Below, in pieces: positions 4,213-42,365 of a DNA stretch of 64,000 nt. Position 1 is the first letter of the stretch, and the number at the start of each line of letters is the position of its first letter. The DNA is from Caenorhabditis elegans (taxonomy: Eukaryota; Nematoda; Chromadorea; Rhabditida; Rhabditidae). The notes under the pieces were generated by a model. The model was not told where the DNA came from. It saw only the letters and a list, made by a program, of their open reading frames with translations, and searched no databases. A program made the translations under genes and the position numbers. The DNA lies in contig NC_003280.10 of the NCBI RefSeq assembly GCF_000002985.6, positions 992,001 to 1,056,000 on the forward strand. Reading direction: 5' to 3'.

Positions 4213-4810
4213 GACGATGAGAAAACACAAAGAATTAGATAGATGGTCCGTTAGGTGAGTTGATGGAGCAGATGGCAGGACCATCTAGCGTGGGAAGATA
4301 GACGAGAGGTTCAGACAGCCAAGCGAAAAGTGTAATTTCTAGATGAGGTCAAGTAGAGTAGATTGCAGATCTCCATGACTTGAAACAGTTCCTGGTATGA
4401 GATAAGGATTTGTAATGAGTCTCTGAAATAACTACCTCAATAACTACGCGGATGTAAGATTTCTTGACATTAAAATGAATCGTTTATTTTTTATTGTAGA
4501 ACTGGACAGTATTGCTTATCACACTTTATTCCACAGAAAAACATTAAAAACTATCAATAGACTTGCATAGAAAAATATAGCGGATTTGATGAGTCAACCT
4601 CGCAGATTGCTTTCGTTCCATCACGTCTTCTGACTTCGAACATTTGTCTGGTCGGAAAAAATCGTTCCAATTTTTCTCTCAACATTTCAATACCATCAAC
4701 ACCTTTGAAAATATCCCTATTAAACACTTGTTCCTCATTCGATGTATATAAATTGAGACTTTTGAGGTTTGGGTTTGATCCCCTTATCCAATGTTTCAGG
4801 AAGAGGTTTA

Positions 4811-9701: not shown

Positions 9702-10544
9702 GGGTAATAAAGTATTGGCGCCATAATGGTGACCTCCGAGTGAATCTCGAGCCTCCACGAGGACCCTTCGGGCTCTCATGGGGTGTTAAGGTCAAGTACG
9801 CAATCAATTTGAAGTTGGCGAATGGAGTTCAAGCGACATCGAAGTCCGTCGTCCAATCACCTATGGCATGATCTCTCTCAATGGAAGTAATCGGGCGGAA
9901 ATTGAGATCCGCGTGCGCATTAATTCATCGTCAGGCTTGCCAAAAAAAGATCTTAAGTGCTTCGACGAGCCGGTGGAGGACCTGACTGATGTGGTGCTTA
10001 TTGTTGAAGATCGGAAGTTCCATGTTATTAGAAAGTTCCTGGCCTCCCATTCGTCCTACTTCAAGAATCTTCTGCTCGGAAACTTCCCAGAGCCCGGAGG
10101 TGACGCTACCAGGCGTTAACGCTGCGGATTTTCAGAATTTCTTGGAAGTTCTATATCTAGAACCAGCTATTGATGGTATCCAGTTTCTTTAATTCTACGT
10201 AGAAAATATAATTATATTTCAGAGAACACCGTTATTGGGATTCATCACCTGGCAGACATGTACGATGTGGAGCCAGTTGTCCGAAAGTGTGAAAAGTTTC
10301 TGATAGAGAAGTCACAGCTGACCGTCAATGAGAAGCTCCATTTTGCGATGCAACACAGAATGGAGAATCTGAAGGAATACTGCCTTTCGAAAATCAAACT
10401 TTGGACGATATCCGCTCAGTTCTACCGGCTGACCTGACCCAATTGGATCCTTCGCTAGCAACTGTTCTTCTCGAGAAAGCAGTGGCTCAGAAATCTCATT
10501 CGTCGGATGGTTGGCTTAATTGTAATGGTTTGCATGATGCCTAA
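9702..10544 (+). pseudogene. BATH (MATH+BTB) gene remnant with at least two frameshifts
   Basis: From about 9868 a frame encodes DLTDVVLIVEDRKFHVIR and FLASHSSYFKNLLLG, the N-terminal half of a BTB domain. A shift near 10090 moves the frame; the next phase continues GVNAADFQNFLEVLYLEPAI. After an intron (about 10180-10221) it gives HHLADMYDVEPVVRKCEKFL and LKEYCLSKIK, typical of C. elegans BATH proteins. A second shift near 10400 leads to LDPSLATVLLEKAVAQ and TAA 10542-10544. Upstream, 9702-9867 holds a decayed MATH-like segment. Intact relatives act as CUL3 ligase adaptors. Confidence 0.75.
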
Positions 10545-10973: not shown

Positions 10974-11329
10974 CGTTTCTCGTGCATTTGAGCACAACAC
11001 GAAAACATGTGATGAATATCAGAAGAAAATGAAGAATGACATCCGTGGAGAGATTCAAATATACAAACCTCGCTGGTGCTCGCTGGTAGTTATGAAGCAG
11101 TGGCCTCGATCGGCAGTGGTCTCATTCGAAGGCGAAGAACGAGTTCAAGGGATGCTCGTACTTTTTGGGGTTTTCTTCCGGAAAGGTGGCTGGCAGACAT
11201 ACGACTAAAAATGGGGCTGAACAGGGTCCAGGATTCGTCGAATGGAATGGAAAATTCAAAGTTTTCAAGGAAGATTTGTTGTTTCCACATTATACCACGT
11301 GGAATATGCTCTACATGGTTGGAGAGTAA
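10974..11329 (+). pseudogene. 3' fragment of the tandem plus-strand pseudogene
   Basis: Matches 16802-17157. It retains the last exon's SRAFEHNTKTCDEYQKKMKN and then the same frame loss, and ends with the MLYMVGE codons and TAA at 11327-11329. It has no 5' part. Confidence 0.85.
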
Positions 11330-12615
11330 TTTTCCCTGTAGTCGTTTCAACTTAAACTCAGTTAAGGACTACAGAAGTACTTTTTTAAAGTATTATTTTG
11401 TGTTGTAAATGTATGATTTGTAAAATTAAATAATAAAATGTTCCATTCTGATAATTGTTTTTTTACGAAAACGAGAGATGAGAGAGTTTCCTCGTGACCA
11501 AGAGCCTTTCAATTGTTTATAGCCAAACTGTTATGCCCAGGTGTTGTCAAGGTGCTCAAATTTCAAATTTTATCAAATTTTAGGTCATTTTTTGAGCCAC
11601 CATGTTTTTTGAGAAGTTTCCAAGAAGTTTCATCAGGAAATTCGGCGTATTCAGAGAATTTTAAGTCTGATAAAGCAATACAAAAATTCGGCAATACAAC
11701 TTTTAATATATTAATTTACATTCTCCGTTTTGAAATGTCTCTCGCTTTTCTTATCAAAAACTATAACCAAACCACAACAATGTTTGAGTTTACAATTTAA
11801 CACCGAAACAAAAAATCATTTCACGAATAAACGAGAATTGTTGATCACGAATCTCTTTTTTCTAAAAAATAAAATAAACTCGTAAAAAATGGACCAAAAC
11901 AATTTTATTGGTCTCTCTCATGAAATTCCTCAGCCCAAGTGAATTTCAAAGCGTAGGAGTGTACTGAGACTGGAAGAATTACTGCCAAACTTACTTTTAA
12001 AAAATGAAATAAAAAAAAACAATTGATCTCAGGAGTTTTATGGTTTGCAAAACTCCGCAACAGTTACGCGACTGTTATCGTCAATTACCCCCAATGTTCC
12101 ACCTTTACACTTTACGTTGGGAAGCTTCATTTTTTCGATCATTAAAACTCTGTGTAATTGTCGCCAAGTTTTACTGCGTATATTCTAACTAAATTCCATG
12201 AAATTAAATTAAACTGCTCAAAGAAATAACCAACAATTTTATTTTATTTTATAAAAACTAACAAATCGGATTGGGCAAACAAAAAACAACTGGAATTCAC
12301 ATTACTCATGCTATTACTCAGGCAACCACGTTAAGGGTCTAATTAGAAAAAATGGTAATAAATTAGAAAAAAGCAATTCTAATTCGAACACGTTAGATCA
12401 CCTATTTTTCTAATTAGACCACCAAACGGGTTGTCTAAGTAACAAAACCATCTTATCTCTCGTTTTTGTAAAAAAAAAAACAATTATTACAATGAAACAG
12501 TTTATTACTTAATTTTACAAATCATACATTTACAACAGGAACAGAAAATAATATTTCAAAAAAAGTTCTTCTGATGCTCTAAAATCAGTTCAAATGAAAA
12601 CGACTACAGGGAAAA

Positions 12616-14475
12616 TTACTCTCCAACCATGTAGAGCATATTCCACGTGCCAGTGGTGACATTGAAAACAGTCAGTTGTCCATCCCAATTGATGAATCCT
12701 GGACCTTTTTCAGCCCCATGTTTTCTTGTCCATCTGACAGCCACATTTCTGGAAGAAAATGCCAAGAAGTATGAGCAACCCTTGAAGTCGTTCTTCGCAT
12801 ATGATGCCACTGCCCATTGAACGAACTCCTTCATATGAGTCTCCAAAGCATACCAAATGCTTCTTTCAATTCTCCGATACATAATATTATCCAGTTTCTT
12901 CCAATATTGTCCACATGTGTACTCACTGTGCTCAAATGCACGAGAAATGATCACGCTGAACTTTCCGCGATTTGTCGAGACAAACACCATTTCGGGTTTC
13001 ACGACGTGAATCTCGTAGTGAACGTTTTTCTCGAAAACATACAGATAGAAGTTGTCCCTGAAATATTATCCTGATTTTCTGAAAAGCGAAAGATGACGTA
13101 CTCTGTGAGAATAGAATCTAATCCTTTTTTGAGCTCGGTGGCCATGTCTTCGTCCTTATCAAACGATCCTTCTCCTTGAATTCTCTCCACGTACTTTTTG
13201 AGTTTCGGCCAGTATGGTCTATCGTTCAAATAATGTTTCTCCCATTGTTCGACCAGAGTAGTGTAGTAAGTTATCTTCTCAATTATTTTCTTACTGTCAC
13301 TTTCGTCTTTTGGATGAAGAAATCCCATTGCGAAGCATTCCAAGAGTAACTTAAAGTCAACAGTGAGTGTGTGAAGATGTTTTATTGAACTTACGAATTG
13401 TGAAAGTGTGCTATTGAGCACGTCTTTCCACTTTTGGAATGTTGCTTTTGAAGTCAGCTCGTCTCCCGCCATACTAACTTTGAGAGGGTTTGTCACATCC
13501 GACTCCAGCTTGATCAACATATCCTGGAAATGGATCGTATCAGAAACTTCAAGCTATAAATCTTCTCTTACTCTGACATATCTCTCTGGTTTAATTTCGT
13601 TGTAGCATTCTTCAAATCTCTCCTTAGTTTTCGTGTCAATAGTCGCCACACAGTCAATCATGTAGTCAAAAAGAAGAGAAGCCTTGTGTGCGTAATTCTG
13701 GAAGGATTCTGATAATATTAATAAAAGGTTTTTTTCACTGACATTATAGAAATCTTTCTCCACCATAAACGCTTTCAATTCGTCAAATTGGACGACCATC
13801 TTTTGCGAGAGCTGAAACCGTATTCGTTTTGGTATAAATTTGTATACCATGAAACAAAGATTACCGATTCAAGTTGACTCTTGAGATTTCCCAACTCTTC
13901 AAGCACAGGATCCTTCTTTTCTGGTTTCGTCATGTCGAGAATATCTTTCAGAAGTGATCCGAATGGACCAAAGAACTGAAGATATTTGGGAAACTTTTCA
14001 AAAACAATCTTTCCAATGTCAACCAAATCCTTTGTGATAGTTGCGACGTTTTTCACAGTGGTTCGAGCATCAACTCCTTCTGCAATAAAATTATTCGTGT
14101 TATTACGTGTTTGTTCTACAACTTACGTGGAGAATATCCTCGTGGAACAACGGTATATCTCAGCGCCTCGTTGAGAAATTCTGAAAGTCAAGTGAAGGTA
14201 ACCATTTTTTGAAAAAAGGCAATATACTCACTCAATGATTGGTCGCTGAGAATGTCTCCTTCTTCCTTCGCAATCGAAATGATCTCCATGGTGGCTGGAG
14301 AATAAATTTCAAAAACTTCCGATGGCTCCAACAGCTCCATCGTTTTCTTCTCATCCATACCGTTTTGCTGCTTCTCGTGCAGAGCATCGTACTCCGCGAA
14401 AAGCTTCGTCGTCAGTCGGTTTGGATCGGGCTTACCGTACTCCTCAGTCTCCATTTTCTCAACAGTTGACGGCAT
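12616..14475 (-). CDS. Unrecognised 508-aa nematode protein, tandem copy 1
   Basis: Eight exons (14475-14232, 14180-14127, 14079-13865, 13811-13743, 13697-13572, 13523-13395, 13349-13102, 13057-12616) join in perfect phase to 508 residues. All introns are short; one acceptor is TTTAAG. I do not recognise the family. There is no signal peptide. Residues 1-80 are acidic; about 100-195 look helical with a hydrophobic patch (FPKYLQFFGPFGSLL, 129-143) and coiled-coil-like heptads after it; about 195-360 are charged helices; the last 150 residues look beta-rich, with GKFSVIISRAFEH, FKGCSYFLAF, GPGFINWDGQL and a terminal MLYMVGE. A TATA-like TTTTATA lies on the complementary strand about 55 bp upstream. 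Function unknown. Confidence 0.85.
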
Positions 14476-14527
14476 TCTCGAGTGAAATCAAAGCGACGAA
14501 TGATGCCAAGTCTTCTCCGAAGTCTCC

Positions 14528-14534
14528 TTTTATA
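14528..14534 (-). promoter_or_regulatory. TATA-like box of the 508-aa gene (repeated in units 2 and 3)
   Basis: TATAAAA on the minus strand, 53 bp before the ATG at 14475, followed by the GGAGACTTCGG leader shared by every member of this family in the window. Equivalent sites are at 20356-20362 and 26174-26180. Confidence 0.45.
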
Positions 14535-15853
14535 CGAACGTTTGGACAAAGATCAGAGTTATCGTGCCACCGAACGTGCTTACGGGCAGATGAAGTTTAG
14601 TCGCTACACGGCGATAAAAGTATGTACCTACTGATAACATTTCTATGAAGAAAGAGAGAGGAGGCATAAAGACGTGCCGTTCGTGATCAACAATTCTTGT
14701 TTATTGGCGAAATGATATTGTGTTTCGTTGGAAAATTGTAAAATCAAATATTGTTGTGGTTTGGTTATAGTTTCTGATAAGAAAATCGAAAGACTTTTCA
14801 AAACGAAAACTCTCTATTACTACAGGGTGGCAATTAATTATATTAGTTAGGATCTATAGCTTGGAGTAACTTCCGATATATTTGAAAAAAAATGTCAGAA
14901 ATTAACAAAGATGGGCACTATGTAAAAGTCATGTTTTGAGTAAAATTTCAAGTGAGCCTCTAATATAGCTTTTCACAAACAGTATTTGATGATTGTGATA
15001 TTTTTTTACCTTTGAGCGTTATCGAATAATCTAAAACACATGTTAATTATAGTCAAGTAGTTTGTCTACTGTTTTACAGTTGTATTAAACCGACCACATC
15101 AATATCCGACGCGTTAGATGACCTCAAAACCAGTAGTGGCTTTTTTTTCTTTTTTTGTTGCTCCTAAAAATCAAAATAGACAACTTATAAAAAATTACTT
15201 TGGTATGCCTTTAAAAGACGGGCCCCATTCCACATGTAAGCACCTATTAGGTTCCAAATTCAAGCTGGTTTAATTGTCTCGAGTGACTTGAATTTCTGGC
15301 ATAATAACTTTTAATGTTGTGCAATTAACATTGTTATCGTGTAGTCAAATTAAAGAAAAATATTGAAAGAACCCGTTTTGATTAAATTCGACATTGAAAT
15401 AATTCCTTCATGCCTAGAACACGTTAGTTTCTTTTTTGCAGAGCAAATTTCATTTATGAATTCTTGTTCACAATTAATTTGTTGTAATTGTGATTTAATT
15501 TTGTGAATTTATATTTTTTCTGAAAGTTATTTCCCGACATTACCTTGTCGCTAAAATTAATTGTCACCATGTATTAATAGACAGTCTCCGTCTTGAAAAG
15601 TCTCTCGATTTTCTTATCAAAAACTATAACCAAACCACAACAATATTTGAGTTTACAATTTAACACCGAAACACAATATCATCTCGCCAATAAACAAGAA
15701 TTGTTGATCATGAATCTCTTTTTTCTTCTTTATTTCTCTACTTCTTTCTTCATTGATATATTATCAGTAAGCAATTACTCTTATCGCCGTGATGCGACTA
15801 AACTTCATCTGCTCGTATGAATTTTTGGTGGCACGTAACTCTGTTCTTTGTCC

Positions 15854-15868
15854 GAACGTTCGTATAAA
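15854..15868 (+). promoter_or_regulatory. GAACGTTC site and TATAAA before the plus-strand pseudogene
   Basis: GAACGTTC (15854-15861) fits the two-module heat-shock-element pattern GAAnnTTC and touches TATAAA (15863-15868), 54 bp before the old start codon at 15922. Copies are at 21682 and 27500. The fuller gene at 29534 has GAACATTC in the same place (about 29465). The intact genes have a decayed form, AAACGTTC. Confidence 0.35.
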
Positions 15869-15921
15869 TGGAGACTTCGGAGAAGAGTTGGCATCATTCG
15901 TCGCTTTGATTTCACTCGAAA

Positions 15922-17157
15922 ATGACGCCGCCACCTGTCGAGGAAGTGGAGAATGTGGAGAACGGAAGCCAGATCCGAACCGACTGACGACGAAACTTTT
16001 CGCGGAGTACGATGCTCTGCACGAGAAGGAGCATAACGGCACAGATGAAAAGAGAACGATGGAGCTCTTGGAGCAATCGGAAATTTTTGAAATTTATTCT
16101 CCAGCCACCATGGAGCCACCATGGCAAAGGAACGATTTGAAGAATGCTACAAGGAAGTTAATCCATTGAGATATATCGGAGTAAGATAATATTTACAGTG
16201 TGAAGTTTCTAATACAATTCATTTCCAGTATATGTTGATCAAGCTGGAGTCGGATGTGACGAACCCTCTCAAAGTGATTATGGAGGGAGAGGAGCTTCCT
16301 TCAAAAGCAACATTCGAAAAGTGGAAAGACGTGCTCAATAGCACACTTTCACAATTCGTAAGTTTATTCGAGCATCTTCACATACTCTGCTGACTTTAAG
16401 TTGATGTTGGAATGCTTCGCTACGGGACTTCTTCATCCAGAAGACAATAGTGACAGTAAGAAAATCATGGAAAAGTTGACTTACTACGATACTCTATTCA
16501 AACAATGGGAGAATCTTTATTTGAACGACATACCATACTGGCCGAAACTCAAAAAGTACGTTGAGAGAATTCAAGGAGAAGGATCGTTTGACAGGGACGA
16601 AGACATGGCCACTGAGCTCTTAAAAGGATTCGAGACCATTTTCACAAAGTACGTCATCTTTTCGCCACTCAATAAATCATGATAATGTTTCAGTGACAAC
16701 TTCTATATGTTTGTGTTCGCCAGAGACATTCACTACGAGATTCACGTTGTAAAACCCGAAATGGTGTTCATCTCGAAGAATATCGGAAAGTTCGACGTCA
16801 TCGTTTCTCGTGCATTTGAGCACAACACGAAAACATGTGATGAATATCAGAAGAAAATGAAGAATGACATCCGTGGAGAGATTCAAATATACAAACCTCG
16901 CTGGTGCTCGCTGGTAGTTATGAAGCAGTGGCCTCGATCGGCAGTGGTCTCATTCGAAGGCGAAGAACGAGTTCAAGGGATGCTCGTACTTTTTGGGGTT
17001 TTCTTCCGGAAAGGTGGCTGGCAGACATACGACTAAAAATGGGGCTGAACAGGGTCCAGGATTCGTCGAATGGAATGGAAAATTCAAAGTTTTCAAGGAA
17101 GATTTGTTGTTTCCACATTATACCACGTGGAATATGCTCTACATGGTTGGAGAGTAA
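15922..17157 (+). pseudogene. Broken copy of the 508-aa gene, unit 1/2 junction
   Basis: ATG at 15922 begins an exon-1 like segment, but one base is missing near 15965 (AACGGAAGCC against TACGGTAAGCCC in the gene at 29534), giving TGA in frame 1. The shifted frame continues DPNRLTTKLFAEYDALHEKE to PATME and then jumps, at about 16118, straight to codons for KERFEECYKE: roughly 650 bp with exons 2-4 are deleted, and GCCACCATGG is duplicated at the joint. A T in GTAAGATAATA adds a stop. Further on, the last exon shifts frame near 16925. It cannot encode the family protein. Confidence 0.88.
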
Positions 17158-20100
17158 TTTTCCCTGTAGTCGTTTCAACTTAAACTCAGTTAAGGACTAC
17201 AGAAGTACTTTTTTAAAGTATTATTTTGTGTTGTAAATGTATGATTTGTAAAATTAAATAATAAAATGTTCCATTCTGATAATTGTTTTTTTACGAAAAC
17301 GAGAGATGAGAGAGTTTCCTCGTGACCAAGAGCCTTTCAATTGTTTATAGCCAAACTGTTATGCCCAGGTGTTGTCAAGGTGCTCAAATTTCAAATTTTA
17401 TCAAATTTTAGGTCATTTTTTGAGCCACCATGTTTTTTGAGAAGTTTCCAAGAAGTTTCATCAGGAAATTCGGCGTATTCAGAGAATTTTAAGTCTGATA
17501 AAGCAATACAAAAATTCGGCAATACAACTTTTAATATATTAATTTACATTCTCCGTTTTGAAATGTCTCTCGCTTTTCTTATCAAAAACTATAACCAAAC
17601 CACAACAATGTTTGAGTTTACAATTTAACACCGAAACAAAAAATCATTTCACGAATAAACGAGAATTGTTGATCACGAATCTCTTTTTTCTAAAAAATAA
17701 AATAAACTCGTAAAAAATGGACCAAAACAATTTTATTGGTCTCTCTCATGAAATTCCTCAGCCCAAGTGAATTTCAAAGCGTAGGAGTGTACTGAGACTG
17801 GAAGAATTACTGCCAAACTTACTTTTAAAAAATGAAATAAAAAAAAACAATTGATCTCAGGAGTTTTATGGTTTGCAAAACTCCGCAACAGTTACGCGAC
17901 TGTTATCGTCAATTACCCCCAATGTTCCACCTTTACACTTTACGTTGGGAAGCTTCATTTTTTCGATCATTAAAACTCTGTGTAATTGTCGCCAAGTTTT
18001 ACTGCGTATATTCTAACTAAATTCCATGAAATTAAATTAAACTGCTCAAAGAAATAACCAACAATTTTATTTTATTTTATAAAAACTAACAAATCGGATT
18101 GGGCAAACAAAAAACAACTGGAATTCACATTACTCATGCTATTACTCAGGCAACCACGTTAAGGGTCTAATTAGAAAAAATGGTAATAAATTAGAAAAAA
18201 GCAATTCTAATTCGAACACGTTAGATCACCTATTTTTCTAATTAGACCACCAAACGGGTTGTCTAAGTAACAAAACCATCTTATCTCTCGTTTTTGTAAA
18301 AAAAAAAACAATTATTACAATGAAACAGTTTATTACTTAATTTTACAAATCATACATTTACAACAGGAACAGAAAATAATATTTCAAAAAAAGTTCTTCT
18401 GATGCTCTAAAATCAGTTCAAATGAAAACGACTACAGGGAAAATTACTCTCCAACCATGTAGAGCATATTCCACGTGCCAGTGGTGACATTGAAAACAGT
18501 CAGTTGTCCATCCCAATTGATGAATCCTGGACCTTTTTCAGCCCCATGTTTTCTTGTCCATCTGACAGCCACATTTCTGGAAGAAAATGCCAAGAAGTAT
18601 GAGCAACCCTTGAAGTCGTTCTTCGCATATGATGCCACTGCCCATTGAACGAACTCCTTCATATGAGTCTCCAAAGCATACCAAATGCTTCTTTCAATTC
18701 TCCGATACATAATATTATCCAGTTTCTTCCAATATTGTCCACATGTGTACTCACTGTGCTCAAATGCACGAGAAATGATCACGCTGAACTTTCCGCGATT
18801 TGTCGAGACAAACACCATTTCGGGTTTCACGACGTGAATCTCGTAGTGAACGTTTTTCTCGAAAACATACAGATAGAAGTTGTCCCTGAAATATTATCCT
18901 GATTTTCTGAAAAGCGAAAGATGACGTACTCTGTGAGAATAGAATCTAATCCTTTTTTGAGCTCGGTGGCCATGTCTTCGTCCTTATCAAACGATCCTTC
19001 TCCTTGAATTCTCTCCACGTACTTTTTGAGTTTCGGCCAGTATGGTCTATCGTTCAAATAATGTTTCTCCCATTGTTCGACCAGAGTAGTGTAGTAAGTT
19101 ATCTTCTCAATTATTTTCTTACTGTCACTTTCGTCTTTTGGATGAAGAAATCCCATTGCGAAGCATTCCAAGAGTAACTTAAAGTCAACAGTGAGTGTGT
19201 GAAGATGTTTTATTGAACTTACGAATTGTGAAAGTGTGCTATTGAGCACGTCTTTCCACTTTTGGAATGTTGCTTTTGAAGTCAGCTCGTCTCCCGCCAT
19301 ACTAACTTTGAGAGGGTTTGTCACATCCGACTCCAGCTTGATCAACATATCCTGGAAATGGATCGTATCAGAAACTTCAAGCTATAAATCTTCTCTTACT
19401 CTGACATATCTCTCTGGTTTAATTTCGTTGTAGCATTCTTCAAATCTCTCCTTAGTTTTCGTGTCAATAGTCGCCACACAGTCAATCATGTAGTCAAAAA
19501 GAAGAGAAGCCTTGTGTGCGTAATTCTGGAAGGATTCTGATAATATTAATAAAAGGTTTTTTTCACTGACATTATAGAAATCTTTCTCCACCATAAACGC
19601 TTTCAATTCGTCAAATTGGACGACCATCTTTTGCGAGAGCTGAAACCGTATTCGTTTTGGTATAAATTTGTATACCATGAAACAAAGATTACCGATTCAA
19701 GTTGACTCTTGAGATTTCCCAACTCTTCAAGCACAGGATCCTTCTTTTCTGGTTTCGTCATGTCGAGAATATCTTTCAGAAGTGATCCGAATGGACCAAA
19801 GAACTGAAGATATTTGGGAAACTTTTCAAAAACAATCTTTCCAATGTCAACCAAATCCTTTGTGATAGTTGCGACGTTTTTCACAGTGGTTCGAGCATCA
19901 ACTCCTTCTGCAATAAAATTATTCGTGTTATTACGTGTTTGTTCTACAACTTACGTGGAGAATATCCTCGTGGAACAACGGTATATCTCAGCGCCTCGTT
20001 GAGAAATTCTGAAAGTCAAGTGAAGGTAACCATTTTTTGAAAAAAGGCAATATACTCACTCAATGATTGGTCGCTGAGAATGTCTCCTTCTTCCTTCGCA

Positions 20101-22629
20101 ATCGAAATGATCTCCATGGTGGCTGGAGAATAAATTTCAAAAACTTCCGATGGCTCCAACAGCTCCATCGTTTTCTTCTCATCCATACCGTTTTGCTGCT
20201 TCTCGTGCAGAGCATCGTACTCCGCGAAAAGCTTCGTCGTCAGTCGGTTTGGATCGGGCTTACCGTACTCCTCAGTCTCCATTTTCTCAACAGTTGACGG
20301 CATTCTCGAGTGAAATCAAAGCGACGAATGATGCCAAGTCTTCTCCGAAGTCTCCTTTTATACGAACGTTTGGACAAAGATCAGAGTTATCGTGCCACCG
20401 AACGTGCTTACGGGCAGATGAAGTTTAGTCGCTACACGGCGATAAAAGTATGTACCTACTGATAACATTTCTATGAAGAAAGAGAGAGGAGGCATAAAGA
20501 CGTGCCGTTCGTGATCAACAATTCTTGTTTATTGGCGAAATGATATTGTGTTTCGTTGGAAAATTGTAAAATCAAATATTGTTGTGGTTTGGTTATAGTT
20601 TCTGATAAGAAAATCGAAAGACTTTTCAAAACGAAAACTCTCTATTACTACAGGGTGGCAATTAATTATATTAGTTAGGATCTATAGCTTGGAGTAACTT
20701 CCGATATATTTGAAAAAAAATGTCAGAAATTAACAAAGATGGGCACTATGTAAAAGTCATGTTTTGAGTAAAATTTCAAGTGAGCCTCTAATATAGCTTT
20801 TCACAAACAGTATTTGATGATTGTGATATTTTTTTACCTTTGAGCGTTATCGAATAATCTAAAACACATGTTAATTATAGTCAAGTAGTTTGTCTACTGT
20901 TTTACAGTTGTATTAAACCGACCACATCAATATCCGACGCGTTAGATGACCTCAAAACCAGTAGTGGCTTTTTTTTCTTTTTTTGTTGCTCCTAAAAATC
21001 AAAATAGACAACTTATAAAAAATTACTTTGGTATGCCTTTAAAAGACGGGCCCCATTCCACATGTAAGCACCTATTAGGTTCCAAATTCAAGCTGGTTTA
21101 ATTGTCTCGAGTGACTTGAATTTCTGGCATAATAACTTTTAATGTTGTGCAATTAACATTGTTATCGTGTAGTCAAATTAAAGAAAAATATTGAAAGAAC
21201 CCGTTTTGATTAAATTCGACATTGAAATAATTCCTTCATGCCTAGAACACGTTAGTTTCTTTTTTGCAGAGCAAATTTCATTTATGAATTCTTGTTCACA
21301 ATTAATTTGTTGTAATTGTGATTTAATTTTGTGAATTTATATTTTTTCTGAAAGTTATTTCCCGACATTACCTTGTCGCTAAAATTAATTGTCACCATGT
21401 ATTAATAGACAGTCTCCGTCTTGAAAAGTCTCTCGATTTTCTTATCAAAAACTATAACCAAACCACAACAATATTTGAGTTTACAATTTAACACCGAAAC
21501 ACAATATCATCTCGCCAATAAACAAGAATTGTTGATCATGAATCTCTTTTTTCTTCTTTATTTCTCTACTTCTTTCTTCATTGATATATTATCAGTAAGC
21601 AATTACTCTTATCGCCGTGATGCGACTAAACTTCATCTGCTCGTATGAATTTTTGGTGGCACGTAACTCTGTTCTTTGTCCGAACGTTCGTATAAATGGA
21701 GACTTCGGAGAAGAGTTGGCATCATTCGTCGCTTTGATTTCACTCGAAAATGACGCCGCCACCTGTCGAGGAAGTGGAGAATGTGGAGAACGGAAGCCAG
21801 ATCCGAACCGACTGACGACGAAACTTTTCGCGGAGTACGATGCTCTGCACGAGAAGGAGCATAACGGCACAGATGAAAAGAGAACGATGGAGCTCTTGGA
21901 GCAATCGGAAATTTTTGAAATTTATTCTCCAGCCACCATGGAGCCACCATGGCAAAGGAACGATTTGAAGAATGCTACAAGGAAGTTAATCCATTGAGAT
22001 ATATCGGAGTAAGATAATATTTACAGTGTGAAGTTTCTAATACAATTCATTTCCAGTATATGTTGATCAAGCTGGAGTCGGATGTGACGAACCCTCTCAA
22101 AGTGATTATGGAGGGAGAGGAGCTTCCTTCAAAAGCAACATTCGAAAAGTGGAAAGACGTGCTCAATAGCACACTTTCACAATTCGTAAGTTTATTCGAG
22201 CATCTTCACATACTCTGCTGACTTTAAGTTGATGTTGGAATGCTTCGCTACGGGACTTCTTCATCCAGAAGACAATAGTGACAGTAAGAAAATCATGGAA
22301 AAGTTGACTTACTACGATACTCTATTCAAACAATGGGAGAATCTTTATTTGAACGACATACCATACTGGCCGAAACTCAAAAAGTACGTTGAGAGAATTC
22401 AAGGAGAAGGATCGTTTGACAGGGACGAAGACATGGCCACTGAGCTCTTAAAAGGATTCGAGACCATTTTCACAAAGTACGTCATCTTTTCGCCACTCAA
22501 TAAATCATGATAATGTTTCAGTGACAACTTCTATATGTTTGTGTTCGCCAGAGACATTCACTACGAGATTCACGTTGTAAAACCCGAAATGGTGTTCATC
22601 TCGAAGAATATCGGAAAGTTCGACGTCAT
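16802..22629. repeat. Tandem repeat unit 2 (5,828 bp)
   Basis: No difference from unit 1 was seen in the stretches compared, including the diagnostic bases near 17330 (AGAGCC) and 17427 (GAGCCACC) and the TAA-containing GTAAGATAATATT near 22010. Its intergenic parts are 17158-18443 and 20304-21749. Confidence 0.93.
18444..20303 (-). CDS. Unrecognised 508-aa nematode protein, tandem copy 2
   Basis: Exon for exon the same as the copy at 12616-14475, shifted by 5,828 bp: 20303-20060, 20008-19955, 19907-19693, 19639-19571, 19525-19400, 19351-19223, 19177-18930, 18885-18444. All predicted peptide segments are identical to copy 1, so the two genes should give the same protein and would be hard to tell apart in short-read data. 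Upstream sequence, including the TATA-like box, is also the same. Confidence 0.85.
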
Positions 22630-22985
22630 CGTTTCTCGTGCATTTGAGCACAACACGAAAACATGTGATGAATATCAGAAGAAAATGAAGAATGACATCC
22701 GTGGAGAGATTCAAATATACAAACCTCGCTGGTGCTCGCTGGTAGTTATGAAGCAGTGGCCTCGATCGGCAGTGGTCTCATTCGAAGGCGAAGAACGAGT
22801 TCAAGGGATGCTCGTACTTTTTGGGGTTTTCTTCCGGAAAGGTGGCTGGCAGACATACGACTAAAAATGGGGCTGAACAGGGTCCAGGATTCGTCGAATG
22901 GAATGGAAAATTCAAAGTTTTCAAGGAAGATTTGTTGTTTCCACATTATACCACGTGGAATATGCTCTACATGGTTGGAGAGTAA
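21750..22985 (+). pseudogene. Broken copy of the 508-aa gene, unit 2/3 junction
   Basis: Same lesions as the copy at 15922: the single-base loss in exon 1, the exon 2-4 deletion with the duplicated GCCACCATGG, the extra stop near 22013, and the frameshifted last exon. All were therefore present before the unit was multiplied. Confidence 0.88.
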
Positions 22986-25900
22986 TTTTCCCTGTAGTCG
23001 TTTCAACTTAAACTCAGTTAAGGACTACAGAAGTACTTTTTTAAAGTATTATTTTGTGTTGTAAATGTATGATTTGTAAAATTAAATAATAAAATGTTCC
23101 ATTCTGATAATTGTTTTTTTACGAAAACGAGAGATGAGAGAGTTTCCTCGTGACCAAGAACCTTTCAATTGTTTATAGCCAAACTGTTATGCCCAGGTGT
23201 TGTCAAGGTGCTCAAATTTCAAATTTTATCAAATTTTAGGTCATTTTTTGAGCCGCCATGTTTTTTGAGAAGTTTCCAAGAAGTTTCATCAGGAAATTCG
23301 GCGTATTCAGAGAATTTTAAGTCTGATAAAGCAATACAAAAATTCGGCAATACAACTTTTAATATATTAATTTACATTCTCCGTTTTGAAATGTCTCTCG
23401 CTTTTCTTATCAAAAACTATAACCAAACCACAACAATGTTTGAGTTTACAATTTAACACCGAAACAAAAAATCATTTCACGAATAAACGAGAATTGTTGA
23501 TCACGAATCTCTTTTTTCTAAAAAATAAAATAAACTCGTAAAAAATGGACCAAAACAATTTTATTGGTCTCTCTCATGAAATTCCTCAGCCCAAGTGAAT
23601 TTCAAAGCGTAGGAGTGTACTGAGACTGGAAGAATTACTGCCAAACTTACTTTTAAAAAATGAAATAAAAAAAAACAATTGATCTCAGGAGTTTTATGGT
23701 TTGCAAAACTCCGCAACAGTTACGCGACTGTTATCGTCAATTACCCCCAATGTTCCACCTTTACACTTTACGTTGGGAAGCTTCATTTTTTCGATCATTA
23801 AAACTCTGTGTAATTGTCGCCAAGTTTTACTGCGTATATTCTAACTAAATTCCATGAAATTAAATTAAACTGCTCAAAGAAATAACCAACAATTTTATAA
23901 AAACTAACAAATCGGATTGGGCAAACAAAAAACAATTGGAATTCACATTACTCATGCTATTACTCAGGCAACCACGTTAAGGGTCTAATTAGAAAAAATG
24001 GTAATAAATTAGAAAAAAGCAATTCTAATTCGAACACGTTAGATCACCTATTTTTCTAATTAGACCACCAAACGGGTTGTCTAAGTAACAAAACCATCTT
24101 ATCTCTCGTTTTTGTAAAAAAAAAAACAATTATTACAATGAAACAGTTTATTACTTAATTTTACAAATCATACATTTACAACAGGAACAGAAAATAATAT
24201 TTCAAAAAAAGTTCTTCTGATGCTCTAAAATCAGTTCAAATGAAAACGACTACAGGGAAAATTACTCTCCAACCATGTAGAGCATATTCCACGTGCCAGT
24301 GGTGACATTGAAAACAGTCAGTTGTCCATCCCAATTGATGAATCCTGGACCTTTTTCAGCCCCATGTTTTCTTGTCCATCTGACAGCCACATTTCTGGAA
24401 GAAAATGCCAAGAAGTATGAGCAACCCTTGAAGTCGTTCTTCGCATATGATGCCACTGCCCATTGAACGAACTCCTTCATATGAGTCTCCAAAGCATACC
24501 AAATGCTTCTTTCAATTCTCCGATACATAATATTATCCAGTTTCTTCCAATATTGTCCACATGTGTACTCACTGTGCTCAAATGCACGAGAAATGATCAC
24601 GCTGAACTTTCCGCGATTTGTCGAGACAAACACCATTTCGGGTTTCACGACGTGAATCTCGTAGTGAACGTTTTTCTCGAAAACATACAGATAGAAGTTG
24701 TCCCTGAAATATTATCCTGATTTTCTGAAAAGCGAAAGATGACGTACTCTGTGAGAATAGAATCTAATCCTTTTTTGAGCTCGGTGGCCATGTCTTCGTC
24801 CTTATCAAACGATCCTTCTCCTTGAATTCTCTCCACGTACTTTTTGAGTTTCGGCCAGTATGGTCTATCGTTCAAATAATGTTTCTCCCATTGTTCGACC
24901 AGAGTAGTGTAGTAAGTTATCTTCTCAATTATTTTCTTACTGTCACTTTCGTCTTTTGGATGAAGAAATCCCATTGCGAAGCATTCCAAGAGTAACTTAA
25001 AGTCAACAGTGAGTGTGTGAAGATGTTTTATTGAACTTACGAATTGTGAAAGTGTGCTATTGAGCACGTCTTTCCACTTTTGGAATGTTGCTTTTGAAGT
25101 CAGCTCGTCTCCCGCCATACTAACTTTGAGAGGGTTTGTCACATCCGACTCCAGCTTGATCAACATATCCTGGAAATGGATCGTATCAGAAACTTCAAGC
25201 TATAAATCTTCTCTTACTCTGACATATCTCTCTGGTTTAATTTCGTTGTAGCATTCTTCAAATCTCTCCTTAGTTTTCGTGTCAATAGTCGCCACACAGT
25301 CAATCATGTAGTCAAAAAGAAGAGAAGCCTTGTGTGCGTAATTCTGGAAGGATTCTGATAATATTAATAAAAGGTTTTTTTCACTGACATTATAGAAATC
25401 TTTCTCCACCATAAACGCTTTCAATTCGTCAAATTGGACGACCATCTTTTGCGAGAGCTGAAACCGTATTCGTTTTGGTATAAATTTGTATACCATGAAA
25501 CAAAGATTACCGATTCAAGTTGACTCTTGAGATTTCCCAACTCTTCAAGCACAGGATCCTTCTTTTCTGGTTTCGTCATGTCGAGAATATCTTTCAGAAG
25601 TGATCCGAATGGACCAAAGAACTGAAGATATTTGGGAAACTTTTCAAAAACAATCTTTCCAATGTCAACCAAATCCTTTGTGATAGTTGCGACGTTTTTC
25701 ACAGTGGTTCGAGCATCAACTCCTTCTGCAATAAAATTATTCGTGTTATTACGTGTTTGTTCTACAACTTACGTGGAGAATATCCTCGTGGAACAACGGT
25801 ATATCTCAGCGCCTCGTTGAGAAATTCTGAAAGTCAAGTGAAGGTAACCATTTTTTGAAAAAAGGCAATATACTCACTCAATGATTGGTCGCTGAGAATG

Positions 25901-28447
25901 TCTCCTTCTTCCTTCGCAATCGAAATGATCTCCATGGTGGCTGGAGAATAAATTTCAAAAACTTCCGATGGCTCCAACAGCTCCATCGTTTTCTTCTCAT
26001 CCATACCGTTTTGCTGCTTCTCGTGCAGAGCATCGTACTCCGCGAAAAGCTTCGTCGTCAGTCGGTTTGGATCGGGCTTACCGTACTCCTCAGTCTCCAT
26101 TTTCTCAACAGTTGACGGCATTCTCGAGTGAAATCAAAGCGACGAATGATGCCAAGTCTTCTCCGAAGTCTCCTTTTATACGAACGTTTGGACAAAGATC
26201 AGAGTTATCGTGCCACCGAACGTGCTTACGGGCAGATGAAGTTTAGTCGCTACACGGCGATAAAAGTATGTACCTACTGATAACATTTCTATGAAGAAAG
26301 AGAGAGGAGGCATAAAGACGTGCCGTTCGTGATCAACAATTCTTGTTTATTGGCGAAATGATATTGTGTTTCGTTGGAAAATTGTAAAATCAAATATTGT
26401 TGTGGTTTGGTTATAGTTTCTGATAAGAAAATCGAAAGACTTTTCAAAACGAAAACTCTCTATTACTACAGGGTGGCAATTAATTATATTAGTTAGGATC
26501 TATAGCTTGGAGTAACTTCCGATATATTTGAAAAAAAATGTCAGAAATTAACAAAGATGGGCACTATGTAAAAGTCATGTTTTGAGTAAAATTTCAAGTG
26601 AGCCTCTAATATAGCTTTTCACAAACAGTATTTGATGATTGTGATATTTTTTTACCTTTGAGCGTTATCGAATAATCTAAAACACATGTTAATTATAGTC
26701 AAGTAGTTTGTCTACTGTTTTACAGTTGTATTAAACCGACCACATCAATATCCGACGCGTTAGATGACCTCAAAACCAGTAGTGGCTTTTTTTTCTTTTT
26801 TTGTTGCTCCTAAAAATCAAAATAGACAACTTATAAAAAATTACTTTGGTATGCCTTTAAAAGACGGGCCCCATTCCACATGTAAGCACCTATTAGGTTC
26901 CAAATTCAAGCTGGTTTAATTGTCTCGAGTGACTTGAATTTCTGGCATAATAACTTTTAATGTTGTGCAATTAACATTGTTATCGTGTAGTCAAATTAAA
27001 GAAAAATATTGAAAGAACCCGTTTTGATTAAATTCGACATTGAAATAATTCCTTCATGCCTAGAACACGTTAGTTTCTTTTTTGCAGAGCAAATTTCATT
27101 TATGAATTCTTGTTCACAATTAATTTGTTGTAATTGTGATTTAATTTTGTGAATTTATATTTTTTCTGAAAGTTATTTCCCGACATTACCTTGTCGCTAA
27201 AATTAATTGTCACCATGTATTAATAGACAGTCTCCGTCTTGAAAAGTCTCTCGATTTTCTTATCAAAAACTATAACCAAACCACAACAATATTTGAGTTT
27301 ACAATTTAACACCGAAACACAATATCATCTCGCCAATAAACAAGAATTGTTGATCATGAATCTCTTTTTTCTTCTTTATTTCTCTACTTCTTTCTTCATT
27401 GATATATTATCAGTAAGCAATTACTCTTATCGCCGTGATGCGACTAAACTTCATCTGCTCGTATGAATTTTTGGTGGCACGTAACTCTGTTCTTTGTCCG
27501 AACGTTCGTATAAATGGAGACTTCGGAGAAGAGTTGGCATCATTCGTCGCTTTGATTTCACTCGAAAATGACGCCGCCACCTGTCGAGGAAGTGGAGAAT
27601 GTGGAGAACGGAAGCCAGATCCGAACCGACTGACGACGAAACTTTTCGCGGAGTACGATGCTCTGCACGAGAAGGAGCATAACGGCACAGATGAAAAGAG
27701 AACGATGGAGCTCTTGGAGCAATCGGAAATTTTTGAAATTTATTCTCCAGCCACCATGGAGCCACCATGGCAAAGGAACGATTTGAAGAATGCTACAAGG
27801 AAGTTAATCCATTGAGATATATCGGAGTAAGAGAATATTTACAGTGTGAAGTTTCTAATACAATTCATTTCCAGTATATGTTGATCAAGCTGGAGTCGGA
27901 TGTGACGAACCCTCTCAAAGTGATTATGGAGGGAGAGGAGCTTCCTTCAAAAGCAACATTCGAAAAGTGGAAAGACGTGCTCAATAGCACACTTTCACAA
28001 TTCGTAAGTTTATTCGAGCATCTTCACATACTCTGCTGACTTTAAGTTGATGTTGGAATGCTTCGCTACGGGACTTCTTCATCCAGAAGACAATAGTGAC
28101 AGTAAGAAAATCATGGAAAAGTTGACTTACTACGATACTCTATTCAAACAATGGGAGAATCTTTATTTGAACGACATACCATACTGGCCGAAACTCAAAA
28201 AGTACGTTGAGAGAATTCAAGGAGAAGGATCGTTTGACAGGGACGAAGACATGGCCACTGAGCTCTTAAAAGGATTCGAGACCATTTTCACAAAGTACGT
28301 CATCTTTTCGCCACTCAATAAATCATGATAATGTTTCAGTGACAACTTCTATATGTTTGTGTTCGCCAGAGACATTCACTACGAGATTCACGTTGTAAAA
28401 CCCGAAATGGTGTTCATCTCGAAGAATATCGGAAAGTTCGACGTCAT
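22630..28447. repeat. Tandem repeat unit 3 (5,818 bp)
   Basis: Same content as units 1 and 2, with a 10-bp deletion in a TTTTA run near 23896 that changes the offset from 5,828 to 5,818. Further marks: AGAACC near 23158, GAGCCGCC near 23253, CAATTGG near 23935, and GTAAGAGAATATT near 27826, where units 1 and 2 have a stop-creating T. The first two marks are shared with the partial fourth unit. Confidence 0.92.
24262..26121 (-). CDS. Unrecognised 508-aa nematode protein, tandem copy 3
   Basis: Offset 11,646 from copy 1; exons 26121-25878, 25826-25773, 25725-25511, 25457-25389, 25343-25218, 25169-25041, 24995-24748, 24703-24262. The peptide is again identical. Its downstream flank carries the unit-3 differences (10-bp deletion, CAATTGG), so the coding part is at least as conserved as the spacer. 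Three intact identical copies next to four broken relatives suggests recent amplification, dosage selection, or conversion. Confidence 0.85.
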
Positions 28448-28803
28448 CGTTTCTCGTGCATTTGAGCACAACACGAAAACATGTGATGAATATCAGAAGA
28501 AAATGAAGAATGACATCCGTGGAGAGATTCAAATATACAAACCTCGCTGGTGCTCGCTGGTAGTTATGAAGCAGTGGCCTCGATCGGCAGTGGTCTCATT
28601 CGAAGGCGAAGAACGAGTTCAAGGGATGCTCGTACTTTTTGGGGTTTTCTTCCGGAAAGGTGGCTGGCAGACATACGACTAAAAATGGGGCTGAACAGGG
28701 TCCAGGATTCGTCGAATGGAATGGAAAATTCAAAGTTTTCAAGGAAGATTTGTTGTTTCCACATTATACCACGTGGAATATGCTCTACATGGTTGGAGAG
28801 TAA
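27568..28803 (+). pseudogene. Broken copy of the 508-aa gene, unit 3/4 junction
   Basis: Shares the exon-1 base loss, the deletion and the last-exon shift, but reads GTAAGAGAATATT near 27826, so the local stop seen in the other two copies is absent and the frame from ATG 27767 runs 90 codons (KERFEECYKEVNPLRYIGVR and on). This is either the ancestral base or a conversion tract. Confidence 0.85.
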
Positions 28804-29335
28804 TTTTCCCTGTAGTCGTTTCAACTTAAACTCAGTTAAGGACTACAGAAGTACTTTTTTAAAGTATTATTTTGTGTTGTAAATGTATGATTTGTAAAAT
28901 TAAATAATAAAATGTTCCATTCTGATAATTGTTTTTTTACGAAAACGAGAGATGAGAGAGTTTCCTCGTGACCAAGAACCTTTCAATTGTTTATAGCCAA
29001 ACTGTTATGCCCAGGTGTTGTCAAGGTGCTCAAATTTCAAATTTTATCAAATTTTAGGTCATTTTTTGAGCCGCCATGTTTTTTGAGAAGTTTCCAAGAA
29101 GTTTCATCAGGAAATTCGGCGTATTCAGAGAATTTTAAGTCTGATGAAGCAATACAAAAATTCGGCAATACAACTTTTAATATATTAATTTACATTCTCC
29201 GTTTTGAAATGTCTCTCGCTTTTCTTATCAAAAACTATAACCAAACCACAACAATGTTTGAGTTTACAATTTAACACCGAAACAAAAAATCATTTCACGA
29301 ATAAACGAGAATTGTTGATCACGAATCTCTTTTTT
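28448..29335. repeat. Partial fourth repeat unit, ended by an internal recombination
   Basis: The sequence follows the unit to about 29325, then switches. Up to TCTTTTTTCT it matches the 11733-11865 type segment; from CTTCTTTATTTCTCTACTTC it matches the 15596-15790 type segment. These two segments of each unit are about 130-bp imperfect repeats, so the fourth unit has lost the minus-strand gene by recombination between them. Confidence 0.82.
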
Positions 29336-29533
29336 CTTCTTTATTTCTCTACTTCTTTCTTCATTGATATATTATCAGTAAGCAATTACTCTTATCGCCG
29401 TGATGCGACTAAACTTCATCTGCTCGTATGAATTTTTTGTGGCACGATAACTCTGATCTTTGTTCGAACATTCGTATAAAAGGAGACTTTGGAGAAGAGT
29501 TGGCATCATTCGTCGCTTCAAGTTCATGAGAGA

Positions 29534-31410
29534 ATGTCGTCACCTGTCGAGCAGATGGAGAATGTGGAGTACGGTAAGCCCAACCCGAACCGACGGACGA
29601 TAAAGCTTTTCGCGGAGTACGATGCTCTGTACGAGAAGCAGCATAACGATATGGATGTGAACAAACCGATGGAGCTGTTGGAGCAATCGGAAGTGTTTGG
29701 AATATATTCTCCAACCACCATGGAGATTATTTCGATTGCGAAGGAAGAAGGAGATGTTCTCAGCGACCAATCATTGAGTGAGTAAATTTCCTTTTTTTTA
29801 AGATGGTTATATTGATTTGACTTTCAGATTTTCTCAATGAAGCGCTGAAATATACCGTCGTTCCACAAGGATATTCTCCACGTAAGTTGTAGAACAGACA
29901 CGAAAAACGAAAAAAATTGTTTTGCAGAATGAAGTGATGCTCTAAACACTGAAAAACGTCGCCAGTGTCACAAAGGATTTCCTTGGCGCGGGAAAGATTA
30001 TTTTTGACAAGTTTCCCAAGTTTCTTCAGATCTTTGGACCACTCGGATCACTTATCAAAGACATTATCGACATGGCGAAACCAGAAAAGAAAGACCCTGT
30101 GCTTGAAGAGTTGGGAAATCTCAAGGGTCAACTTCAATCGGTAATCTCTGTTTCATGGTATACAAATTTATACCAAAACGAATACTTTTTCAGCTCTCGC
30201 AAAAGATGGTCGTCCAATTTGACGAATTAAAATCGTTCATGGTGGAGAAAGATTTCTATAATGTCAGTGAAGAAACCCTTTTATTTTTTAATCATATTAT
30301 CAAAAACCTTTCAGAATTATGCTCACAAGGCTTCTCTTCTTTTCGAATACATGATGGACTGTGCGACTGTTGACAAGAAAGCGAAGGAACGATTTGAAGA
30401 ATGCTACAAGGAAATGAAGCCAGAGAGATATGTCACAGTAAGAGAAGAATTACAGCTTGAAGTTGTTACTAATACAATTAATTTCCAGGAAATGATGATC
30501 AAGCTGGAGTCGGACGTGACGAACCCTCTCAAAGTGATTATGGCGGGAGACGATCTGACTTCAAAAGCAACATTTGAAAAGTGGAAAAGCGTGCTCGCAA
30601 GCACACTTGCACAATTCGTGAGTTTGTTCGAACATCTTCACACACACATACTGTTGTTTTTTTTTAATTTTAAGTTGATGTTGGAATGCTTCGCTATGGG
30701 ACTTCTTCATCCAAAAGACGAAAGTGACAGTAAGAAAATCATGGAAAAGATGACTTACTACTCTACGCTGGTCCAACAATGGGAGAAGCATTATTTGAAC
30801 GATAGACCATACTGGCAAAAACTCAAAAAGTATGTGCAGAGAATTCAATTCGTTTAACAAGGACGAAGACATGGCCGACGCGCTCTTGAAAGGATTCGAG
30901 ACCATTTTCACAAAGTACGTCAACTTTCCGGAGCTCAGAAAATCATGATAAGGTTTCAGTGACAACTTCTATATATGTGTTTTCGACAGAAACGTTCACT
31001 GCGATTATCACGCAGTGAAACCCGAAATGGTGTTCGTCTCGACGAATAACGGAAAGTTCAACGTGATCATTTCTCGTGCATTTGAGCACAATGAGTCGAC
31101 ATGTTTGCAATGGTGGGAAAAACTTTACGATATCAAGGATCGGAAGGTTAAAGTAGGAAACATTTTCTACTCTTTGACAATTCATATGAAAGAATTCCTT
31201 CAATCGGCTGTGGTATCATATGCAAAGAACGAGTTCAAGGGATGCTCGTACTTCTTGGCGATTACTTCCCAAGATGTGGCTGTCAGATGGACGAAAAAAA
31301 ATGAGGCTGCTAACTATAAGGGTCCAGGATTCTTCAATTGGGATGGAGAACTGATGGTTTACAATGTCCTTAATGCCAAGTGGTTTATGCTCTACATGGT
31401 TGGAGAGTAA
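29534..31410 (+). pseudogene. Fuller plus-strand relative of the 508-aa gene, two lesions
   Basis: Exon 1 29534-29777 and exon 2 29828-29881 are clean, and later exons (for example 30308-30434 region and 31015-31410) are readable over the whole family length. Exon 3 (from 29928) starts with an in-frame TGA and has a 2-base deletion relative to the intact genes. Near 30846 an 8-base deletion gives RIQFV then stop. The last exon is intact to MLYMVGE and TAA at 31408-31410. It lacks the internal deletion of the tandem pseudogenes, so it represents an older state. A working product would need unseen alternative splicing; pseudogene is more likely. Confidence 0.75.
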
Positions 31411-31746: not shown

Positions 31747-32779
31747 TCACGATAACTCAATGAGTCGATCGAAGATCTTGGCCTTTGTCGCATCCGACAA
31801 CTGCAAGTAATCGTCCGATCCTTTGAACTTCTTAGCCTGGTCGAAGCTTTTCATCTTCTGGATTTCCATAGCCAATAGCTTTTGAAGTCCGTATTTCTCT
31901 GCCAGGGAAATCAACCGTTTATTTGGGAACTTGGTGGTGTCTCCAACGATTTGGTTTTCCACGTGACGCATCACAGCCGGAATCTTGAAACGATTTCCCA
32001 GCTCGAGAAGGACTTCAGCGTTCTGGTCTGAAAATTGAGATTAGTAACTGGAAGGGATTAGGAGTAACTCACGATTCGAGAAAACCGCTTCAGGGTAGAT
32101 GACACTCATGAGAAGCCCGAAATTCTCATAGGTCACGTTTTCGATCGGGATCCCGTTCTTCTCGTCGACTTTCTCAGCGAATAGATCAGAAAAATAGTCG
32201 GAGTGATAGGAGAGGAACTAAAATTTTCAAGCTAAACTTAGCAAGATTCCAAATTAAAACTTACAGCCTTGTTCACATGAAGCTTCTTCTCCCCAATTAA
32301 GAGCACCGCATCGTGCTTCCTGGATGGCTCAAACATTGTGTCATAAGACACCTGAGATTTGAGGTCATTAGAAATCTGGGGTGGTTTGGCTGGGTCGCGG
32401 TGAAGTTTTAGATTGAACGAAAACGACCAGCGGTATTCATATAGGAATTTAGGAACTATTATTGTGCAGATTCCTCCTCGTTTGTCAAAGTTCGAATCAA
32501 TAGGTTTCAGTTGATGGCCATCATACGACAATTGGATGAAACCAGTGATCTTCTCTATGTCTCGCTCATCCCAATCCAGTTTTATTTTCAGGTGAATCTC
32601 GTCCGTCTCGATTTTATTAGTTATAACACTAAAAAAAATACTGTTTTATCTGTCATTCAATAACATTTTTATTACCATGTTAATCCGTTCAAAAAACTGA
32701 TATCGAAGAGGTGGTAACCTCTTTGGAGGTAATTTGGTTCGCTTTCAAATTTAATACTTTCAGTAACAATATTGTCCAT
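31747..32779 (-). CDS. BTB-domain protein, intact (CUL3 adaptor type)
   Basis: Exons 32779-32676, 32628-32265, 32217-32073 and 32027-31747 join in phase to 297 residues. The first half (to about 140) resembles the divergent MATH-like region of nematode BTB proteins (TNKIETDE..LKIKLDWDERD..., ITGFIQLSYDGHQLKP). The BTB fold follows: HDAVLLIGEKKLHVNKAFLS, HSDYFSDLF, ENFGLLMSVIYPEAVF, VLLELGNRFKIPAVMRHVE, then a helical tail ending LIELS. BTB proteins with this layout recruit substrates to CUL3 ubiquitin ligases; the substrate here is unknown. It lies next to the broken 508-aa gene, tail to tail. Confidence 0.85.
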
Positions 32780-42335: not shown

Positions 42336-42365
42336 TATTGGAAACTTTGTGAAAATTCCGAAATG

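What the first reader, a model, noticed from the sequence alone, without database searches (positions are those of the whole stretch)
10974..31410. Tandem array of an unrecognised 508-residue gene: three identical intact copies, five broken ones
Three 5.8-kb units each carry one intact eight-exon gene on the minus strand and one broken relative on the plus strand; a fuller broken relative sits at 29534. The intact copies are the same in every predicted peptide segment while every plus-strand copy is broken. The protein fits no family I know: an acidic N-terminus, a helical middle with a hydrophobic patch at 124-149 next to heptads, and a beta-like C-terminus. A helical bundle with a hydrophobic hairpin recalls membrane-acting proteins, but that is speculation. 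Amplified lineage-specific genes amid SCF/CUL3 adaptors are candidates for an immune or genetic-conflict role.
Basis: partly seen in the sequence, partly recalled or inferred. Interest (0 to 1): 0.85.

Follow-up and report, generated by a model that had tools for sequence, protein, structure and literature searches.

The report
Tandem-amplified nematode DUF684 gene
A worm gene of the known but functionally uncharacterised DUF684 family has recently been copied three times in a row next to older dead copies; the duplication is real in this sequence, but the protein is not from an unrecognised family and the arrangement is fairly ordinary for such gene clusters.

Summary
Window 10974-29337 is about 3.15 head-to-tail units (5828, 5828, 5818 bp). 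Units 1 and 2 are identical; unit 3 differs by four substitutions and a 10-bp deletion. Each holds one intact eight-exon minus-strand gene for the same 508 aa and a broken plus-strand relative; a full-length broken relative lies at 29534-31410.

Corrections. The protein is not family-less: residues 160-483 match Pfam DUF684, E 9.6e-77. The identical peptides and 'five broken copies' are not independent facts: whole units are 99.7-100% identical, and four of the five broken pieces are one defective gene copied with the array.

DUF684 is among domains enriched in C. elegans genes induced early in microsporidian infection (PMC4063957, P 0.049), so an immune role is plausible, not shown. The membrane-hairpin idea stays unproven: no strong hydrophobic stretch, a sub-threshold HBL match that did not recur, low-confidence models.

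Most likely an inducible cytosolic stress/infection protein in a fast-duplicating cluster. New member of a known kind; modest interest.

The parts
12616..14475 (-). Intact DUF684 gene, copy 1 (exons 14475-14232, 14180-14127, 14079-13865, 13811-13743, 13697-13572, 13523-13395, 13349-13102, 13057-12616)
   Evidence: GT-AG splicing, 508-aa open frame; Pfam PF05075 E 9.6e-77
18444..20303 (-). Intact DUF684 gene, copy 2, same protein
24262..26121 (-). Intact DUF684 gene, copy 3, same protein
10974..16801 (.). Tandem unit 1, 5828 bp
16802..22629 (.). Tandem unit 2, 5828 bp, identical to unit 1
22630..28447 (.). Tandem unit 3, 5818 bp; 4 substitutions and one 10-bp deletion against unit 1
28448..29337 (.). 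Partial fourth unit, right edge of the array
10974..11329 (+). 3' piece of the defective plus-strand gene, left edge of the array
15921..17157 (+). Defective DUF684 relative (lacks end of exon 1, exons 2-4 and part of 5; frameshifts), copy 1
21749..22985 (+). Same defective relative, copy 2
27567..28803 (+). Same defective relative, copy 3
29534..31410 (+). Full-length defective DUF684 relative; stop and 2-bp deletion in exon 3, 8-bp deletion in exon 7
   Evidence: piece 30231-30854 matches PF05075 E 4.3e-31
14476..14790 (-). Promoter side of copy 1: TATAAA box 59 bp and CTGATAAG GATA-type site about 300 bp before the ATG
   Evidence: the function of these motifs is inferred

Best explanation
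This is a recently amplified locus of the nematode DUF684 family. Shown: three near-identical units with one intact 508-aa DUF684 gene each, beside two separate losses of relatives. Inferred: unequal exchange in a cluster that already held several DUF684 copies in both orientations made the array, and the three copies raise the dose of one protein. Inferred: the protein has no evident signal peptide (by eye) or transmembrane stretch, works in the cytosol, perhaps of the intestine, and is switched on by stress or intracellular infection, its long helices and its C-terminal mixed domain serving binding rather than catalysis.
For: DUF684 match over profile positions 1-325 of 338. Array anatomy. 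DUF684 among domains enriched in C. elegans genes up at 8 h of N. parisii infection, P 4.94E-02, with DUF713, MATH and FTH (PMC4063957, passages). F45D11.14, labelled DUF684 in PMC3527274, is in a table of cadmium-responsive genes with 2.1 and 2.6 fold (PMC2394766, passage) and higher in daf-2(e1370) than in two other daf-2 alleles (PMC2775958, passages). A CTGATAAG site, of the type recalled for intestinal ELT-2, lies about 300 bp before the ATG. Gene against full-length relative: omega 0.47, bootstrap 0.35-0.65. Other recent duplications in the window: 1933-4810 inverted, 98.4%; 42967-45511 against 45809-48366, 96.8%.
Against: No expression data for this gene or species. The microsporidia enrichment is marginal, and knock-down of most genes tested in that study had little to no effect on pathogen load. 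F45D11.14.15 and .16 were lower, not higher, in stressed aak-2 mutants than in wild type (PMC3045954). The GATA-type site is one 8-mer and may be chance (5 occurrences in 64 kb on both strands, three of them copies of this one). No enzyme, partner or confident fold identified. The branch test for constraint on the intact gene is only a trend (P 0.062; 0.27 without exon 8).
Confidence: 0.6

Rival explanations
1. Neutral amplification: the triplication is drift in a duplication-prone cluster and has no functional meaning; copies will decay as the plus-strand ones did.
For: F-box neighbours show recent duplications too; two separate DUF684 losses lie in or beside the array; the units are so alike that selection has had little time to act; none of the 5 differences falls in the gene, but with 1,860 of 5,828 bp that is unremarkable (about 0.15 by chance, simple arithmetic).
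Against: Omega 0.47 shows past constraint in at least one lineage; the intact lineage has fewer replacement changes per silent change (1.64) than the broken ones (2.79, 3.30; P 0.062).
Confidence: 0.3
2. Membrane-acting host effector: the helix-turn-helix at about 103-149 followed by a heptad helix inserts in membranes as in alpha-helical pore-forming proteins, with the C-terminal domain aiming it.
For: Exon 3 modelled as long helix, FFGP turn, second helix; weak Bacillus_HBL match at 139-188.
Against: The HBL score is about half the cut-off and did not recur in exon-3 pieces; hydropathy of the patch is low; models are of fragments with 2-row alignments; no PDB sequence relative.
Confidence: 0.1
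3. The copy number is an assembly artefact (duplicated haplotype or mis-joined repeat).
For: Units 1 and 2 are identical over 5,828 bp; no independent reads.
Against: Unit 3 differs at 5 sites, and the window resolves other hard repeats (about 2-kb and 1.5-kb arrays of a 15-bp unit), which points to long-read data (inference).
Confidence: 0.1

Closest known systems
Pfam PF05075 (DUF684), called a Caenorhabditis domain of unknown function in PMC4063957
   Same: Near-full-length profile match, far above cut-off
   Different: About 160 N-terminal residues lie outside the Pfam domain; local triplication
C. elegans F45D11.14 (labelled DUF684 in PMC3527274) and the neighbouring gene numbers F45D11.15 and F45D11.16
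   Same: F45D11.14 carries the family label; the three consecutive numbers respond together in PMC3045954, which suggests a cluster; that .15 and .16 are also DUF684 is recalled
   Different: Sequences not compared here; no C. elegans protein set is on hand
Infection-induced expanded families of Caenorhabditis (DUF713, PALS, MATH/BATH, F-box/FTH)
   Same: Listed with DUF684 as families implicated in the Nematocida response
   Different: No sequence relation tested; PALS and DUF713 get expression detail in PMC9762603, DUF684 does not
Bacillus_HBL (PF05791), alpha-helical pore-former family
   Same: Weak local match of 50 residues
   Different: 14.2 bits against a 29.1 cut-off; no full-domain match; not a member

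Membership tests
DUF684 (PF05075) | Score above Pfam gathering cut-off | tested here: met
   258.7 bits against 25
DUF684 (PF05075) | Match over most of the profile | tested here: met
   Profile 1-325 of 338
DUF684 (PF05075) | Inducible by intracellular infection (reported as an enrichment of the family, not a defining feature) | not testable with these tools
   No expression data for this locus; literature only
Bacillus_HBL / alpha-helical pore-forming proteins | Score above Pfam gathering cut-off | tested here: not met
   14.2 bits against 29.1; the two exon-3 pieces gave no HBL row
Bacillus_HBL / alpha-helical pore-forming proteins | Strongly hydrophobic membrane-inserting hairpin | tested here: inconclusive
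   Helix-turn-helix model, mean pLDDT 67; no 19-residue window of 124-149 among the top eight printed, maximum elsewhere 1.29
SCF/CUL3 adaptor (F-box, BTB, MATH) | F-box, BTB or MATH domain in the 508-aa protein | tested here: not met
   None among the 5 Pfam rows up to E 10

The most novel reading that the evidence does not exclude
DUF684 proteins are a nematode-specific class of intracellular, membrane-acting defence effectors: a helical hairpin plus heptad helix acts on the membrane and a C-terminal domain aims it. This lineage has tripled one of them under pathogen pressure beside an expanded ubiquitin-adaptor cluster.
Probability: 0.08. Interest if true: 0.65.

Novelty: new member of a known kind. 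Interest (0 to 1): 0.27.

Why it matters
DUF684 has little literature: 4 papers in the held library contain the name, and none of the passages I saw gives a mechanism. A lineage with three identical copies gives a natural dosage case for asking what such proteins do in the infection and stress response. Otherwise it is an ordinary example of fast gene turnover in a nematode F-box/BTB cluster.

Tried and rejected
Searches that led nowhere: PDB by sequence, 0 matches up to E 10; NCBIfam and PHROGs, 0 families; viral contigs and genome contigs, 2 and 8 stretches matched a pattern, none confirmed by tblastn, so there is no sign of a viral or prokaryotic source at that sensitivity (six peptide patterns each). 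Foldseek of the exon-8 model: 0 of 130 matches at E <= 0.001, best E 0.47; the model is too poor (mean pLDDT 42) for the rows to mean anything. The exon-3 model was not searched.

Heat-shock idea: the promoters of the broken plus-strand genes have a GAANNTTC element just before the TATA box, but in the intact gene's promoter the first half is changed, and neither GAANNTTC nor TTCNNGAA occurs in 600 bp; each of the two occurs about 0.8 times per 600 bp in the window anyway. Positive selection: omega is below 1 overall (0.47), in each of the 8 exons taken singly (0.09-0.82) and for exon 8 (0.53, 0.32-0.91), so no evidence (501 of 509 codons kept, 8 with gaps dropped, 2 of the 501 being stops that were passed over). 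Branch counts used 346 codons aligned in all three sequences, in exons 1, 5, 6, 7 and 8 only. A rapunzel/cephalotoxin link was recalled, not tested; the one paper that holds two of the words rapunzel, DUF684 and cephalotoxin does not hold DUF684. A six-term search for an AlphaFold or pore-forming paper on such a protein returned 0. F45D11 is in 11 papers (10 listed); I saw passages of 5 of them and not the rest.
Full report
Observation. The window (64,000 bp, 38.4% G+C) contains a head-to-tail array from 10974 to 29337. Unit 1 (10974-16801) and unit 2 (16802-22629) are both 5,828 bp and identical; unit 3 (22630-28447) is 5,818 bp and differs from them by four substitutions and a 10-bp deletion; a partial fourth unit runs to 29337. 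Each unit has one minus-strand gene of eight exons. All seven introns are GT-AG, the CDS is 1,527 bp including the stop, and the three 508-aa products are identical. On the plus strand there are five pieces of broken relatives.

Two points change how this should be read. The three copies of the shorter plus-strand relative, and the 3' piece at 10974-11329, belong to the repeated unit, so they are one defective gene copied along. The full-length relative at 29534-31410 is a separate loss, with a stop codon and a 2-bp deletion in exon 3 and an 8-bp deletion in exon 7. So there are two losses, not five. Likewise the identity of the three proteins follows from the near-identity of the whole units, and none of the five differences between units falls in the gene; that is no evidence of selection, since by simple arithmetic it would happen about 15% of the time.

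Family. The protein is not of an unknown family. Pfam-A gives DUF684 (PF05075) with E 9.6e-77, 258.7 bits against a cut-off of 25, over residues 160-483 and profile positions 1-325 of 338. Pieces of the broken relatives also match DUF684 (30231-30854, E 4.3e-31; 16362-16679, E 2.2e-15), but the exon-8 piece (30961-31407) and the exon-3 piece (29946-30140) of the full-length broken copy did not, nor did exon 3 of the intact gene, which lies almost wholly before the Pfam domain. No sequence relative has a solved structure, and nothing was found in NCBIfam, PHROGs or the two contig collections scanned.

What is published. Four papers in the held library contain the word DUF684; I saw passages of all four, and section 18 of PMC9762603. 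PMC4063957 lists DUF684 among domains enriched in C. elegans genes up at 8 h of Nematocida parisii infection (P 4.94E-02), beside DUF713, MATH and FTH, and says that knock-down of most genes tested had little to no effect on pathogen load. PMC9762603 and PMC10030041 include DUF684 among families examined; section 18 of PMC9762603 reports expanded families rising in both C. elegans and C. briggsae but gives details for PALS and DUF713, not DUF684. PMC3527274 labels F45D11.14 as DUF684. F45D11.14 is in a table of cadmium-responsive genes with 2.1 and 2.6 fold in PMC2394766 and is higher in daf-2(e1370) than in two other alleles in PMC2775958. F45D11.14.15 and .16 are lower in stressed aak-2 mutants than in wild type in PMC3045954, which suggests that they are co-regulated neighbours. 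That .15 and .16 are also DUF684 is recalled, not tested. The passage of PMC3325191 holds F45D11.1 only and says nothing about these genes.

Anatomy of the protein. No 19-residue window reaches a mean Kyte-Doolittle value above 1.29, and that maximum lies at 271-289 across the exon 6-7 junction, not at the patch 124-149; the usual transmembrane cut-off of 1.6 is recalled. The start of the protein is acidic (net charge -7 over residues 1-60), and by eye it has no signal peptide. Exon 3 (residues 101-171), folded apart with one relative in the alignment, gives helices at 103-128, 137-149 and 157-170 with a short one at 130-133, mean pLDDT 67. Exon 8 (residues 363-508), folded likewise, gives three strands, two helices and four strands, but with mean pLDDT 42 and no usable fold match. 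The Bacillus_HBL row (E 0.041, 14.2 bits against a 29.1 cut-off, residues 139-188) is the only trace of a pore-former, and it did not recur in the exon-3 pieces of the gene or its relative, though those pieces end at residue 171 and so cut the match.

Selection. Between the gene and its full-length broken relative the distance is 13.9% in exons and 15.7% in introns. Nei-Gojobori omega is 0.47 (bootstrap 0.35-0.65), 0.44 for exons 1-7 and 0.53 for exon 8. In a three-way count over 346 codons the intact lineage has 36 replacement and 22 silent changes, the full-length broken copy 53 and 19, the repeated broken copy 76 and 23; the contrast of intact with broken has P 0.062, and 0.27 without exon 8. 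The gene evolves fast but under some constraint; there is no sign of positive selection in this one pair.

Promoter. The intact gene has TATAAA 59 bp before its ATG and a CTGATAAG site about 300 bp before it; TTATCA-type sites stand at like distances in the relatives' promoters. CTGATAAG occurs 5 times in the window on both strands, three of them being the copies of this promoter. This is the type of site recalled for the intestinal factor ELT-2, so intestinal expression is a guess.

Surroundings. Of 20 neighbouring ORFs that I chose for scanning (159 ORFs of 80 aa or more are listed for the whole window, array included), 10 match FBA_2 (F-box associated), 2 match BTB (pieces of what looks like one gene), 1 a mariner-type transposase, 1 a Tc5 domain just below its cut-off, and 1 an Srh chemoreceptor; 5 had no match at E 0.01. 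The F-box neighbours show recent duplications of their own: an inverted one at 1933-4810 (98.4%) and a tandem one at 42967-45511 against 45809-48366 (96.8%). So recent duplication is the habit of this region and not peculiar to DUF684. That the window is from a Caenorhabditis-like nematode is inferred from these families; the species was not identified.

Verdict. A real, recent tandem triplication of a DUF684 gene, as far as the assembly can be trusted. Best reading: an inducible, probably cytosolic stress or infection protein whose dose has risen by local duplication; mechanism open. Known family, ordinary setting, modest interest.

Noticed in passing
1933-4810: Near-perfect inverted duplication (98.4% over 2,887 columns) that includes an FBA_2 ORF (2637-3368), with an 84-bp tandem repeat (3329-3496) near its centre; looks like a recent inverted copy of an F-box gene.
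   Followed up: partly
42339-44640 and 45809-47482: Two long arrays of a 15-bp unit containing GAGACCC (135.7 and 100.3 copies), with overlapping GAANNTTC/TTCNNGAA runs, like multimeric heat-shock elements, on both sides of the first and to the right of the second. PMC6927752 (start of abstract and one passage seen) reports heat-shock elements inside Helitrons in Caenorhabditis; a Helitron origin here was not tested. Each array lies beside an FBA_2 ORF within a 96.8% tandem duplication.
   Followed up: partly
39764-40846 (-): Long mariner-type transposase ORF, 361 aa, with Mos1-type HTH and Transposase_1 matches.
   Followed up: no
9790-10434 (+): BTB exons just left of the array.
   Followed up: no
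31750-32645 (-): Gene-like ORFs right of the array; the two ORFs scanned gave no Pfam match at E 0.01.
   Followed up: no
37750-38477: Tandem repeats of a 43-bp unit rich in CCGGCAAATCGGCAAA, with a related array at 53983-54078.
   Followed up: no
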